Part shown: positions 3,857 to 64,000 of the stretch, piece by piece
Position numbering within the stretch: position 1 is the stretch's first letter
Layout of the letters: every line of letters begins with the position of its first letter
Source: Pseudonocardiaceae bacterium YIM PH 21723
Lineage (GTDB): Bacteria; Actinomycetota; Actinomycetes; Mycobacteriales; Pseudonocardiaceae
Assembly: GCA_003600225.1 (NCBI GenBank)
Contig: QZFT01000056.1
Coordinates: forward strand, 186,001 to 250,000
Direction: 5' to 3'
Length of the DNA: 64,000 bases
The notes under the pieces: generated by a model
Databases searched by the model: none
The model's input: only the letters and a program-made list of their open reading frames with translations
Told to the model about the DNA's origin: nothing
Translations under genes and position numbers: made by a program

Positions 3857-5152
3857 TCACCCCAGGTACGCCGCCGCCTCCGCCACCGCCCGATCCACCA
3901 GCTCAGGCGCCGCCCCGATGTACTCGGCCGGGTCCAGCAGCTCACCCAGCTCGGCCAACTCCGGAGCCTCGGCCAGCGGAGCCTCCCATGCGGACAGTTC
4001 GGTGAGCAGCCGCTTGGCCTCGGCCTTGCCCAACCGGCCGGCCAGCACGACGCTGAGCCGTTCACTGATGATGCCGCCGTCGGTGATGTCCAGGTTCCGG
4101 CGCATCTGCTCCGGGAACACCCGCAGCCCCTCGGTCAGCTCGGCCGCGGTGGCCGCCGCTCCCCCGGTCAGCCGCAGCATCTCGCGCAGCGGCTGCCACT
4201 CCGCGTGCCAGCCGCCGGCCGATCGCTCGTCCTCCTGCAGCAGCGCGCCGTGCAGGATCGCGCAGTAACCGGGCAGCTGCCGGGCCGCCGTCACCAGCAG
4301 CGTGGCGAGGACCGGGTTCCGCTTCTGCGGCATCGCCGAGGAACCACCCCGGCCCGGCGCAGCCGGTTCGGCCAGTTCGGCGATCTCGGTGCGGGTCAGC
4401 GTCTGCACATCGATGGCCACCTTGCCCAGCGCGCCACCGGTCAGGGTCAGCGCGGCACCGAGCTCGGCGACCGGGGCACGCAGCACGTGCCACGGCACAA
4501 CGGGTTCGGCCAGCCCCAGCTCGCGGGCGAACTCCCGGATGAGCGGCACCCCGGCGCCGTACTCCTGGAACGCCGCGAGGGTGCCCGCGGCACCGCCCAG
4601 CTGCGCGGGCAGTTCCAGCCGGTCCAGGGCGCGCAGCGCGGCGAGGACCTGGTGCGTCCAGCCGGCGGCCTTGAGCCCGAAGGTGGTCGGAACGGCGTGC
4701 TGGGTCAGGGTCCGGCCGGGCATCGCCGTGGTCCGGTGCTCGACGGCCAGGGCGCTCAGCGATCTGACGACCCGGCGCAGATCGGCGCGGATCCCGTCCA
4801 CCACCTGGCGGGCGATCAGCATCGTGGCGCTGTCCAGGATGTCCTGGCTGGTCGCGCCCCGGTGCACGCCGTCGGCAGCCTCTTTCGGCACCTGGGCGGT
4901 GAGCCGCGGCACCAGGCCGACGACCGGATTGCCGGCGCCACGGGCGGCGACGGCCAGCTCGGTGACGTCGATGTCCGCGGCGGCCGAGGCGATCGCGGCC
5001 GCCGTGCTCTCCGGGATCACGCCCAGCCGGGCCTGCGCCGCCGCGAGGGCGACCTCCGCCCGGACCATGGCGGCGAGCCAGGCCTCGTCGGTGGTCAGCC
5101 GGTGGGCCTGGGTACCTACCCAGGTCGGGGACAACAGGCCAGAATCGATCAT
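3857..5152 (-). CDS. pcaB: 3-carboxy-cis,cis-muconate cycloisomerase-like (PcaB) lyase
   Basis: A 431-residue member of the fumarase/aspartase superfamily. The signature GSSAMPQKRNP lies near residues 268-280, where PcaB enzymes carry the flexible catalytic serine loop. The TSQDILDSA block (His-Arg-Gly before it) and the FGLKAAGW region also match cycloisomerases of the protocatechuate branch of the beta-ketoadipate pathway, which close 3-carboxymuconate to the muconolactone. Length is normal (about 430-450). The start at 5152 (MIDSGLLSPTW) fits the family N-terminus. No other pca gene is nearby, so this copy is orphaned; adenylosuccinate lyase is a less likely alternative. Confidence 0.85.
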   Translation of the reverse strand: MIDSGLLSPTWVGTQAHRLTTDEAWLAAMVRAEVALAAAQARLGVIPESTAAAIASAAADIDVTELAVAARGAGNPVVGLVPRLTAQVPKEAADGVHRGATSQDILDSATMLIARQVVDGIRADLRRVVRSLSALAVEHRTTAMPGRTLTQHAVPTTFGLKAAGWTHQVLAALRALDRLELPAQLGGAAGTLAAFQEYGAGVPLIREFARELGLAEPVVPWHVLRAPVAELGAALTLTGGALGKVAIDVQTLTRTEIAELAEPAAPGRGGSSAMPQKRNPVLATLLVTAARQLPGYCAILHGALLQEDERSAGGWHAEWQPLREMLRLTGGAAATAAELTEGLRVFPEQMRRNLDITDGGIISERLSVVLAGRLGKAEAKRLLTELSAWEAPLAEAPELAELGELLDPAEYIGAAPELVDRAVAEAAAYLG

Positions 5153-16744: not shown

Positions 16745-16919
16745 GGCGGTGGGGCGGGCGCATGATATTTGCGCCTACTCACGCCTCAAGGGCGCTTCGC
16801 GTCCGGCTTCGCCGGATGTCGCTGCGCTCCACCCTTGACCCGTGAGCCTCTGGCGCAAAAACGGGCAGATAAAGGGCAGGCTGGGGCCTGCCCTATTGGG
16901 GCGCGCCCGCCCCACCGCC
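16745..16919 (+). repeat. Structured ~175-bp repeat, left copy (inverted relative to the right copy)
   Basis: The unit is closed by a perfect 17-bp stem (16745-16761 with 16903-16919). Inside it are nested stems: TTTGCGCC/GGCGCAAA (16768-16775, 16852-16859), CTCACG/CGTGAG (16778-16783, 16841-16846), CAAGGG/CCCTTG (16787-16792, 16832-16837), a TCCGGC-TTC-GCCGGA hairpin (16802-16816) and a second domain GGGCAGGC-TGGG-GCCTGCCC (16874-16893). Nearly the same sequence occurs in reverse orientation at 18175-18363, so the two copies form long inverted repeats around the DUF222/HNH gene. Could be a mobile-element end, a MITE or a structured RNA. Confidence 0.85.
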
Positions 16920-16937
16920 CTACCGGGGGGTGCTCCG

Positions 16938-18077
16938 CTAGCCATCTGGGTCGGCTCCCGGATCCATGCGGACCAGGAACTTCGCGCCACTCGGGGACGT
17001 CCACGCAAGATCACCGTTGGGGAGGATCTCGTAAGCCCACCCGTGCTGGTCTTTCAAGATGTGGTGCCTGCGACAGAGTGGCGCCATGTCCCAGCCTCGG
17101 GTGACTCGACTGTGCTGGTACTGCTCGCGATGATCCAGATCGCTGGTGACGGCCGGTGCTTGGCAGTTCGGGAATCGGCAGGTCTTGTGGCGGGTGATCA
17201 AGAAGTCCCGCTCAGCCTGACTGAGTCGATATCCCCTGCGCGAGAAATCGATCCCCACACCAGTGGCCGGGTCGGTGATCATGCGTAGCCACACCGATGA
17301 GACCACTGCCATCTGACGTGCCATCGATCCGAGAATCGCTCCGTGGCCCTGCATCTCGGCGCCGTGCTCTTGTTTGCCTTCGATCACGTCCTTCGGGATC
17401 GTGATCACGATCTTGGGATCCACCGGCGCGAACCCCTCACTACCGGCTCCACCGGCGGCGAGCACAGCAGCCGCGAGGTCAGCGCGGGCTTGATCTTGAG
17501 TCCGGCCATCATCGGTGGTTCGCGTGTTGCGGACCTGCTGATCGATGGCCTGATACGCGGCCTGCACTTCGGGTGCGGTCGAGTACAGACGCAGCTCGCC
17601 CATCCCGTCCGGTTTGCTGGTCACCGTGAACGACCGGTCTTTCTTGCGCCGCTGGTGTCGTTCTTCGGCGCCGTGTGGGTCGAGTTCTTGGATGTACCGC
17701 TCACCCAACGCGCGCATCTCGGAATTCGACAGTTCATGCGCGGTGGGCAGAACCTTCTCCTCGACCAGTCCCGCCAACTCCGCGTCGAGGGGTTTGGTGA
17801 GGGTGTGCAGCATCTGAGCTTTGGCGAGATCGATCCCACCCGAAGCGAGGGCTTCTTGCGTGCACGGCAGCTTCTCTTTCAGCGCCTCGGCGAGAGCGAT
17901 GAAATGGCGGATCCGAGCCGAACTGACCGTCATCTCGACCCGGGTCTCTTCCCGATCCGAATCACAGTCCAACGAAGTCGACAACAGCTCGCGCAGGTCC
18001 TGAAGGAAGTCAGCCGTCACCGTCGCGATGAGCCGGTATTTACCGGCCACGCTCTGCGGTGTCAGCTCTTTCCTCAT
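16938..18077 (-). CDS. DUF222 and HNH endonuclease domain protein (13E12 family)
   Basis: A 379-residue protein: N-terminal helical DUF222 region (about 20-290) and a C-terminal HNH nuclease domain (about 300-350). The HNH core reads CRFPNCQAPAVTSDLDHREQ ... CRRHHILKDQHGW, with zinc-like CxxxxC and H/C pairs and the DH catalytic motif. GC content is visibly lower than in neighbouring genes. It is the only gene between the two inverted structured repeats: its stop is 18 bases from the left copy and its start 97 bases from the right one. Such proteins are abundant repeats in actinomycete genomes and their role is unknown; nicking or cleaving DNA for element mobility is inferred. Confidence 0.88.
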   Translation of the reverse strand: MRKELTPQSVAGKYRLIATVTADFLQDLRELLSTSLDCDSDREETRVEMTVSSARIRHFIALAEALKEKLPCTQEALASGGIDLAKAQMLHTLTKPLDAELAGLVEEKVLPTAHELSNSEMRALGERYIQELDPHGAEERHQRRKKDRSFTVTSKPDGMGELRLYSTAPEVQAAYQAIDQQVRNTRTTDDGRTQDQARADLAAAVLAAGGAGSEGFAPVDPKIVITIPKDVIEGKQEHGAEMQGHGAILGSMARQMAVVSSVWLRMITDPATGVGIDFSRRGYRLSQAERDFLITRHKTCRFPNCQAPAVTSDLDHREQYQHSRVTRGWDMAPLCRRHHILKDQHGWAYEILPNGDLAWTSPSGAKFLVRMDPGADPDG

Positions 18078-18174
18078 GCCTCCATTTTAGTCGAACAGGA
18101 ATACGATTTCGAATCACTATCAGGTGATTAATGCAAGATCAACTCGCGCCGTAGGTTACCCATGAATCACTGGA

Positions 18175-18363
18175 GCGGGTCGGTGGTGGGCGGGCGCGCC
18201 CCTGAAGAGGGCAGGCCCCAGCCTGCCCTTAATCTGCCCGTTTTTGCGCCAGAGGCTCACGGGTCAAGGGTGGAGCGAAGCGACATCCGGCGAAGCCGGA
18301 CGCGAAGCGCCCTTGAGGCGTGAGTAGGCGCAAATAAACTGCGCCCGCCCACCACTGACCCGC
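18175..18363 (-). repeat. Structured ~190-bp repeat, right copy
   Basis: Reverse-complement of the left copy over about 165 bases with only scattered differences. Its closing stem is longer: 18175-18197 pairs with 18341-18363 at 22 of 23 positions plus one G-U. The internal stems seen in the left copy (TTTGCGCC/GGCGCAAA, CTCACG/CGTGAG, CAAGGG/CCCTTG, TCCGGC/GCCGGA, GGGCAGGC/GCCTGCCC) are all kept. It ends two bases before the stop codon of the XRE gene at 18366 and lies upstream of the DUF222/HNH start. Confidence 0.85.
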
Positions 18364-63112: not shown

Positions 63113-64000
63113 GTGAGCGACAATTATGAGTTCCCAGTGAGCGGTTTTGCGGACCTGGTCAAGCGACACCGTGAGACCACTGCGTCCATGTACTGGTATG
63201 CGGCTCGGATGGCCGAGGAGCGGGGTGACTCCGACTTCGTCGCCGACACCGTCGCCGAGGTAATGGGCATGTCACGTCAGCGCGGGGCGAACTGGCTGGA
63301 GGTCGCGCAGGCTCTGGACAGCCCGTTGGAGTCCACCTTCGAGGCCTTGCTGGAGGGGCTGATAGACGAGGAGCGGATGCGGGCGATCTATTCCAAGACC
63401 CGCTGGCTGTCCCCGGACAACCTCGTGCTGGTGGAGCGGATCGCGTTGGACAACGCGGGCTGGATGTCGGCGCGGCAACTGTGCGGGGTCATGGAAAAGG
63501 AGATCCTGCGCATCGACCCCGACGGCCACGCGAAGCGAAGGTCGCGACGGATATCGCACCGCAGGCTGGAGCACCTTCCCGGATCCGATGGGGTATCGAC
63601 CCTGTCGATCACCGGGGATGAGGTCACCAACCATGCGATCCGCCAGCATGTGGGTGCGCTGGCGAAGCGGTTGCGAGGTGAGGGGGATGAGCGGGAGATG
63701 GATCAGTTGCGCTGCGACATCTCTCAACAGCTCCTGCTAGGGAAGTTCGACGGCGCGGGGGATGTGCAGGCCGACATCATCATCCACCTGAACCCGGACA
63801 TTCTGGCGGGATTCTCCAACGCTCCGGCCGAGGTCGCGGGCATGGGGCCGATGGCCGCCGAAGTCGCCCGGAGCTACGCCGCCAAAGGCGATTGGTACCG
63901 CCTCGTCGAGGATCCGGTGACCGGTGTCGGGATCACCGCCGAGACGAAGTCGAGGTTCCCCACTCCGGAGATGCGGAGGCTACTGCTCTCCAACTCCAAG
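63113..64000 (+). CDS. DUF222 protein, N-terminal part (HNH domain beyond window)
   Basis: From the GTG at 63113 the frame stays open to the edge (296 codons). It has DUF222 features: GMSRQRGANWLEVAQALDSP ... MSARQLCGVMEKE and the pre-HNH segment VEDPVTGVGITAETKSRFPT followed by MRRLLLSNSK. In the related gene at 16938 the equivalent part precedes the CxxxxC of the HNH domain, so an HNH domain should follow immediately outside the window. It is not a recent duplicate of that gene: sequence is only distantly similar, and I see no structured repeat upstream. Confidence 0.8.
   Translation, partial: MSDNYEFPVSGFADLVKRHRETTASMYWYAARMAEERGDSDFVADTVAEVMGMSRQRGANWLEVAQALDSPLESTFEALLEGLIDEERMRAIYSKTRWLSPDNLVLVERIALDNAGWMSARQLCGVMEKEILRIDPDGHAKRRSRRISHRRLEHLPGSDGVSTLSITGDEVTNHAIRQHVGALAKRLRGEGDEREMDQLRCDISQQLLLGKFDGAGDVQADIIIHLNPDILAGFSNAPAEVAGMGPMAAEVARSYAAKGDWYRLVEDPVTGVGITAETKSRFPTPEMRRLLLSNSK

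What the first reader, a model, noticed from the sequence alone, without database searches (positions are those of the whole stretch)
16745..18363. DUF222/HNH gene between inverted, highly structured 175-190 bp repeats
A single nuclease gene is framed on both sides by nearly identical repeats in opposite orientation, each ending within 20-100 bases of the gene. Each copy by itself folds into a closed multi-stem structure. DUF222/HNH genes are common actinobacterial repeats without a known mode of spread; paired structured repeats would make this a candidate mobile unit, or a nuclease with a structured RNA or DNA target. The gene's lower GC supports transfer.
Basis: partly seen in the sequence, partly recalled or inferred. 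Interest (0 to 1): 0.88.

Follow-up and report, generated by a model that had tools for sequence, protein, structure and literature searches.

The report
Nuclease gene between branched DNA ends
A small nuclease gene, boxed in by two mirror-image copies of a long DNA sequence that can fold into a branched shape, is present as one unit at fourteen places in this bacterium's genome, and the same folding sequence turns up on its own in many related bacteria.

Summary
A DUF222/HNH gene (16938-18077, minus) lies between two inverted, about 180-nt branched palindromic arms (16745-16918; 18177-18361). The host genome holds 14 such genes, all open (median dN/dS 0.09). Twelve have arms on both sides (some left arms carry deletions); two are cut by contig ends. 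Similarity stops at the arms' outer ends, the 12 measurable sites look intergenic, and no target duplication was found.

The arm is a structured family without Rfam match. Its fold is conserved with strong covariation (90 arms: 95.4% of cells paired; 40 of 49 pairs with two-sided changes). It occurs in 27 of 200 genomes of the family and 27 of 394 of the class. In two genera it sits just 5' of DUF222 genes (27 of 28 and 11 of 14 arms). Elsewhere it is solo, even where DUF222 is absent; one solo site is empty in four sister species.

Selection looks DNA-level: G.T and A.C mismatches are equally common, and most hairpin triloops are GNA on the strand whose 3' end points outward, as in Streptomyces telomeres.

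Best reading: a dispersing unit with telomere-like ends that works like REP/RAYT but is no member. The nuclease's role is inferred.

The parts
16745..16918 (+). Right arm (3' of the gene): branched palindromic module, read outer to inner. Closing stem 16746-16761 with 16903-16918; long arm with small hairpins about 16768-16857; hairpin GGGCAGGC..GCCTGCCC about 16872-16893.
16938..18077 (-). DUF222/HNH gene, 379 aa, one of 14 copies in the genome
17052..17180 (-). HNH-type motif region (residues 300-342: C-x4-C .. DxDH .. LCRRHH). The position of the motif's Asn is Asp in 14 of 14 copies.
   Evidence: motif reading recalled
18084..18089 (-). TAAAAT, possible -10 element close to the start (leaderless start possible)
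   Evidence: inference
18091..18106 (-). SOS-box-like TCGNNTNNNNGTTCGA, in 13 of 13 copies with sequence there (the 14th is cut by a contig start)
   Evidence: consensus of the mycobacterial LexA box recalled
18113..18128 (-). Operator-like imperfect palindrome ATCACCTGATAGTGAT
18177..18361 (-). Left arm (5' of the gene), same module in inverted orientation, outer end at 18361
16745..18361 (-). Whole unit arm-gene-arm; similarity between copies ends at the arms

Best explanation
It is a dispersed, mobile-like gene unit of about 1.6 kb: a possibly DNA-damage-inducible DUF222/HNH nuclease gene bounded by two inverted copies of a branched palindromic DNA module. The module acts at DNA level as a terminal fold-back structure. 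It is independent of the gene in distribution and occurs alone in many Actinomycetes. Here it stands at both ends of the DUF222 gene, and the composite was copied as a unit into intergenic sites. Proposed working: when the region is single-stranded or supercoiled, the strand whose 3' end points outward folds into a branched hairpin with GNA minihairpin tips; the HNH nuclease nicks or breaks DNA at or near this structure; host repair or replication copies the unit to a new place through a fold-back intermediate, without target duplication. SHOWN: the unit and its ends, copy number, intact selected genes, conserved structure, strand-polar GNA loops, fixed 5' position beside DUF222 in other genera, solo copies. 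INFERRED: that the nuclease acts on the arms, the fold-back intermediate, the SOS control and the direction of spread.
For: Fourteen open copies sharing the same ends; 12 of 12 measurable units 1576-1629 bp. dN/dS 0.05-0.14, median 0.092, over 91 pairs at dS 0.35-0.88. Fold conserved in 90 arms: 95.4% of cells paired, 40 of 49 pairs with two-sided changes, 0 of 500 shuffles as high, slid controls 36-47% paired. Mismatches G.T 59 and A.C 57 in core helices. Triloops GNA on the 3'-outward strand 162 of 209, reverse 1 of 209; by distinct context 46 and 1 of 79; all four bases in the middle; shuffled arms 30 and 54 of 649. Arms 5' of DUF222 on the same strand: G007 27 of 28, G029 11 of 14 plus 1 inverted 3' arm, G055 5 of 18, and G574 in another family. 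In G007 the same arm stands before DUF222 genes that do not align as DNA.
Against: No copy pair shows a recent jump (best other copy 89% to the window unit). No target duplication and no empty site for the unit. Arms occur without DUF222 (G065 15, G109 2, G009 2). Arm presence and DUF222 presence are not associated over 200 genomes: 19 of 27 against 110 of 173, Fisher p 0.67. Outside these genera arms are mostly solo. G007 units have only a 5' arm. Left and right arms of one unit are no more alike than those of different units (0.792 against 0.779, p 0.27). Other DUF222 subfamilies of the same genome are dispersed without these arms. The predicted protein model is weak and matched no fold. HNH enzymes are not known to me to transpose DNA by themselves.
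Confidence: 0.45

Rival explanations
1. Passenger/composite model. The arm is a MITE- or REPIN-like structured element moved by some other factor. DUF222 genes are repeatedly caught beside or between arms and then copied along with them; the nuclease plays no part.
For: Arms in genomes without DUF222, no genome-level association, a solo arm stretch absent in 4 of 4 sister species with both flanks aligned, solo arm-like sequences on plasmids, arm shared by different DUF222 subfamilies in G007.
Against: Position and orientation are fixed in three genomes (27 of 28, 11 of 14, 25 of 30), which random capture does not predict. No other mobilising gene was found beside the solo arms I looked at (ORF lists, partly cut).
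Confidence: 0.3
2. Arms as transcription insulators or terminators and nuclease-resistant spacers: cis elements that shield the gene from read-through. The genes spread by ordinary duplication or homologous recombination and are kept for a host function.
For: Arms lie outside the putative promoter and after the stop. Some units start close behind a stop codon in the same direction (flanks). Genes are under purifying selection. REP13E12 loci are gene-conversion hot spots (PMC13061034, passages).
Against: Insulation does not explain the strand-polar GNA loops, the near-total Watson-Crick covariation of a multi-branch fold, or solo copies that come and go.
Confidence: 0.17
3. Structured RNA model, HEARO/IscB-like: the arm is a non-coding RNA that works with the HNH protein, for example as a guide.
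For: HNH gene directly downstream of a conserved structure, with solo copies elsewhere. A DUF222 profile touches IscB HNH domains weakly (E 0.066-0.13; the top hit there is a ribosomal protein at 0.052). The G007 arms alone show 27 G.T against 2 A.C, though these copies are closely related.
Against: Over all arms the core helices have G.T 59 and A.C 57, and by pair-and-genome events 31 against 49 (binomial p 0.057), whereas an RNA read from the sense strand should favour G.U. Loops are GNA on the antisense strand. The putative promoter lies between arm and gene. No Rfam match at E <= 1.
Confidence: 0.06

Closest known systems
REP13E12 / 13E12 repeat family (DUF222-HNH repeats of mycobacteria)
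   Same: Same protein family by Pfam DUF222 (that REP13E12 genes are DUF222/HNH is stated in a passage of PMC10589994); multicopy, dispersed, function unknown. REP13E12 loci are reported as gene-conversion hot spots with 87 events (PMC13061034, passages).
   Different: No inverted structured arms are mentioned in the passages I saw. I did not examine mycobacterial chromosomes for arms.
REP/REPIN and RAYT (PMC3116915, passages)
   Same: Nuclease-type gene near palindromic repeats that also occur alone, extragenic, predicted to fold as single strands; inverted doublets.
   Different: RAYTs are IS200/IS605-like tyrosine transposases; here the protein is DUF222/HNH. The arm is about 180 nt and multi-branched. 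In this genome 1 solo arm stands against 14 units.
Streptomyces telomeres (PMC4513846, PMC8743542, passages)
   Same: 3' end folds inward around hairpins with 3-nt GNA-type loops (GAA, GGA, GTA; GCA closed by G:A sheared pairs); similar length (a 167-bp minimum is cited there); same strand polarity as the arms.
   Different: The arms lie inside chromosomes, not at replicon ends. No terminal-protein or Tap gene was sought. No telomere sequence was aligned to the arms.
HEARO / IscB omega RNA
   Same: Conserved structure just upstream of an HNH-protein gene, with solo copies (HEARO features recalled).
   Different: No Rfam match, no RuvC domain found by Pfam, mismatch pattern over all arms not RNA-like.

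Membership tests
DUF222/HNH (13E12-type) gene family | Pfam DUF222 domain above the curated cut-off | tested here: met
   82.7 bits against cut-off 24.4
DUF222/HNH (13E12-type) gene family | C-terminal HNH motif | tested here: inconclusive
   Motif CxxxxC..DxDH..LCRRHH present by eye in 14 of 14 copies, Asn position replaced by Asp; the Pfam HNH model is not matched by the window protein
REP/RAYT | Y1 (HUH) tyrosine transposase | tested here: not met
   Only DUF222 is matched
REP/RAYT | palindromic repeats beside the gene and solo copies elsewhere | tested here: met
   25 of 30 arms in units, 1 solo, 4 at contig ends; solo arms in other genomes
Insertion sequence or MITE with TIR and TSD | target-site duplication | tested here: not met
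   Shared flank words not above shuffled pairs, 12 units, 0.147 of shuffles as high
Insertion sequence or MITE with TIR and TSD | terminal inverted repeats at the unit's ends | tested here: met
   Arms in inverted orientation at both ends
Insertion sequence or MITE with TIR and TSD | known transposase in the unit | tested here: not met
   Only DUF222 found by Pfam, nothing by NCBIfam
HEARO / IscB omega RNA | Rfam family match of the structure | tested here: not met
   0 matches at E <= 1
HEARO / IscB omega RNA | RuvC nuclease domain besides HNH | tested here: not met
   Only DUF222 matched
Streptomyces-type telomere | location at the end of a linear replicon | tested here: not met
   14 units at internal places of contigs or cut by contig ends of a draft assembly
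Streptomyces-type telomere | hairpins with GNA-type 3-nt loops on the 3'-outward strand | tested here: met
   162 of 209 triloops, reverse 1 of 209; telomere loops after PMC8743542
Homing endonuclease | cuts an unoccupied homologous site that it then occupies | not testable with these tools
   No empty allele for the unit: genus of one genome

The most novel reading that the evidence does not exclude
A categorically new class of mobile element: an HNH (DUF222) nuclease-driven element that moves through a linear or single-stranded fold-back intermediate whose ends are telomere-like branched DNA, built from a module that also exists as non-autonomous solo copies across Actinomycetes and may share function or origin with actinobacterial telomeres.
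Probability: 0.25. Interest if true: 0.93.

Novelty: new variant of a known kind. Interest (0 to 1): 0.78.

Why it matters
DUF222/HNH genes are abundant in Actinobacteria (found in 129 of 200 genomes of this family alone) and include the REP13E12 repeats of M. tuberculosis, yet how they spread and what they do is not known to me from any paper my searches listed. A conserved, branched, strand-polar DNA structure at the unit's ends gives a concrete substrate to test, and a covariance model that finds it. The structured module is itself widespread and has no Rfam match, and its likeness to telomere hairpins could link chromosome-end biology with the spread of repeats.

Tried and rejected
Rfam search of the unit: nothing at E <= 1. 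Close relatives of the gene outside the own genome: none at E <= 1e-80 in 149 other family genomes. Two genome-contig scans gave 0 and 8 distant loci, 27-33% identical, 7 of them from one Microbacterium. Plasmid and phage records hold only distant DUF222 relatives. NCBIfam and PADLOC gave no family. Structure prediction (pLDDT 71.6, pTM 0.35) and Foldseek (0 of 334 matches at E <= 0.001) were uninformative. Left and right arms of one unit converted to each other: not supported. Target duplication: not supported. Genome-level association of arm and DUF222: absent. Long inverted pairs around other DUF222 subfamilies of the same genome: the 402-, 394- and 403-aa loci examined show none, apart from a 60-nt, 80% pair at L035 and 24-nt hairpin pairs in three 403-aa loci; L122, a DUF222 fragment locus, has a 53-nt, 81% pair; not followed. 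A telomere identity of the Streptomyces plasmid hit: only the arm tip matches, about 600 bases from the record's end.

Limits. R1 was made from 23 of 26 own arms (C1a_L and C18_L left out as deleted, C33_L as partly deleted), and A3 is fitted to R1, so pair counts lean towards the structure. Helices 7-9 (misaligned tip) were left out of the G.T/A.C count; the whole structure with them has more G.T (own arms 33 to 12, others 85 to 63). One search scored 13, seven and ten candidates per genome, so counts there are lower bounds. One search saw only about 1.5 kb on each side of most arms. Arm-DUF222 distances use HMM match ends, not annotated genes. Loops were counted on RNA-parameter folds with special-loop bonuses off.

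Full report
1. Observation. The window holds a 379-aa DUF222 gene on the minus strand at 16938-18077 between two inverted arms, 173 nt and 90% complementary. The right arm region folds far better than shuffles (z -7.4). Gene GC is about 0.62 against about 0.70 around it.

2. Copies in the own genome (G000, 7.6 Mb, 111 contigs). The arm region gives 34 BLAST matches. A search with the protein finds 14 full-length genes at 87-100% identity, all open; the next are a 48% gene (C17) and a 61% partial one (C68). Read in gene orientation, the 14 show one plan: left arm, about 100 nt of conserved promoter region, gene, right arm. Two are cut by contig ends (C29a lacks the left arm, C82a has a cut right arm). 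Two left arms carry large deletions (C1a, C18) and one a smaller one (C33). The other 13 units align to the window's unit at 81-89%, and similarity among copies ends at the arms. Twelve measurable units are 1576-1629 bp and look intergenic; joining the flanks restored a candidate open frame in 1 of 12 (C18, doubtful). With the wider model R2 the genome has 30 arms: 25 in these units, 4 at contig ends, 1 solo in C96. Flanks share no target duplication.

3. Selection. The 14 genes give dN/dS 0.05-0.14 (median 0.092) with dS 0.35-0.88 over 91 pairs. So the copies are old, none is broken, and function has been kept.

4. The arm as a structure. The 26 arms extracted from the units share one plan: a closing stem of about 16-21 bp, a long arm ending in several small hairpins, and a separate hairpin GGGCAGGC..GCCTGCCC; the arms with deletions lack parts of it. 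Five right arms (C43, C26, C46b, C13, C18) and two left arms (C1a, C29b) have different sequence; all but the deleted C1a left arm keep the fold. A covariance model (R1) found arms in 27 of 200 genomes of the same family, 15 of 46 genera. Aligned, 90 arms give 95.4% paired cells, two-sided changes at 40 of 49 pairs and 736 cells, 0 of 500 shuffles as high, and slid controls at 36-47% paired. A second model (R2) finds arms in 27 of 394 genomes of the class, 15 of 138 genera, in ten families by their labels.

5. DNA rather than RNA. In the well-aligned helices mismatches are G.T 59 and A.C 57. Counted once per pair and genome they are 31 and 49 of 1065 (p 0.057). A sense-strand RNA should favour G.U. 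One genome, G007, departs (27 to 2), and the pooled single-genome arms depart the other way (8 to 29); copies within a genome are close kin. Triloops: 162 of 209 read TNC on the outer-to-inner strand, that is GNA on the other strand, and 1 of 209 the reverse. In distinct contexts it is 46 to 1 of 79, with all four bases in the middle; shuffled arms give 30 TNC and 54 GNA of 649. The bias is strong in the own genome (59 of 64) and G007 (46 of 48), weaker in G065 (7 of 20) and G055 (6 of 14). GNA triloops are known as very stable in DNA (recalled; one such hairpin, CGCGAAGCG, is given a melting point of 88.5 degrees in a passage of PMC10527192). The strand bearing them has its 3' end at the outer end of each arm. 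Streptomyces telomeres have mostly GAA, GGA and GTA loops at 3' replicon ends (PMC8743542, passages), and a first palindrome that pairs inward around hairpins closed by G:A sheared pairs, likened there to parvovirus rabbit ears (PMC4513846, passages). The arms share loop type, polarity and outline with these. I aligned no telomere sequence, so kinship is not claimed.

6. Relation to DUF222 elsewhere. In G007, 27 of 28 arms lie just 5' of a DUF222 match on the same strand, covering 27 of 44 DUF222 matches. In G029, 11 of 14 arms do so and one more is an inverted 3' arm, making one unit with both arms. In G055 it is 5 of 18; 10 of the other 13 lie within 450 bases of a contig end, where a gene may be missing. 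G574, in another family of the class, has an arm 5' of a DUF222 gene. In G007 one arm type, about 92-96% alike in most pairs, precedes DUF222 genes of groups that do not align to each other as DNA over the gene, so the arm is a module. Against a tight link: G065 (15 arms), G109 (2) and G009 (2) have no DUF222 match. Of 27 arm-holding family genomes 19 have DUF222, against 110 of the 173 others (Fisher p 0.67). Of the loci L260-L287 brought, L285 is the own genome; of the other 27 only L260 holds DUF222 in the roughly 1.5 kb on each side. Solo arm-like sequences lie on plasmids of Nocardia, Mycobacterium, Streptomyces and Gulosibacter, with no DUF222 gene found in the stretches fetched.

7. Empty sites. 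The genera of G000 and G007 hold one genome each, so the DUF222 unit could not be tested. In the genus of G065 (6 genomes) the stretch holding a solo arm (about 530-560 nt between aligned flanks) is replaced by about 75-240 nt in the four sister species where both flanks align (L242-L245). So a solo arm stretch came or went on its own; exact ends cannot be read. At the L167 site only one flank aligned in each relative looked at, which is no test.

8. Promoter. Between the left arm and the gene, 13 of 13 copies with sequence there have TCGNNTNNNNGTTCGA, close to the mycobacterial LexA box as I recall it, plus an operator-like palindrome. A TAAAAT stands a few bases before the start codon in most copies (TAGAAT in C1a), so the gene may be leaderless and the left arm is then not part of its message. 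This is inference; no transcript was seen.

9. Other DUF222 units. The same genome has DUF222 subfamilies of 402, 394 and 403 aa, also dispersed units of roughly 1.3-1.65 kb, 74-96% alike. They lack these arms, but most 403-aa copies read end in a long 3' hairpin, and the 402-aa copies have a 19-bp hairpin upstream. Structured ends may be a wider habit of DUF222 units. This was not tested statistically.

10. Verdict. The paired arms make a real, old, maintained, dispersed unit whose ends are a widespread, DNA-level branched structure that no call matched to a known family. That the HNH protein acts on the arms is the natural but unproven link. It works like a REP/RAYT pair or a telomere-ended element, but fails defining features of both. 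The passenger model is the chief rival.

Noticed in passing
window about 63212-64000, plus strand (runs past the window end): A second DUF222 gene in the window, 415 aa open frame, a divergent relative (about 75% DNA identity) of the 403-aa DUF222 subfamily of this genome.
   Followed up: partly
L029-L039, L107-L117, L123-L125 (own genome): Copies of the 402-, 394- and 403-aa DUF222 subfamilies share a left-end motif like GCTTCTGG..GTTGTCGAAAG..GGCTTTGGAGGGGGAG, although the genes differ.
   Followed up: no
L029-L038 and L124 (own genome), upstream of the gene: A perfect 19-bp hairpin whose loop GCGGCGAGGAACGAGCCC is kept while the stem differs in L124.
   Followed up: no
L185, L188 (G007) and L189 (G029), 3' of the DUF222 gene: Long hairpins with the shared frame GTGGCAAG[stem]..[stem]GCGGCAGC just after DUF222 genes of two genera, possibly another structured end.
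   Followed up: no
window 17052-17180: The central Asn of the HNH motif is Asp in 14 of 14 copies of this subfamily, while the C17 relative has Asn.
   Followed up: partly
L027 2573-2750 (own genome, C96): The only complete solo arm of the own genome away from contig ends lies about 300 bases from what looks like an SRP RNA gene (recognition recalled, not searched).
   Followed up: no
L227 and L228, arm 5' of the gene at 4292 / 4264: Two Nocardia plasmids carry an arm at the same place, about 120 bases upstream of a protein phosphatase 2C gene.
   Followed up: no
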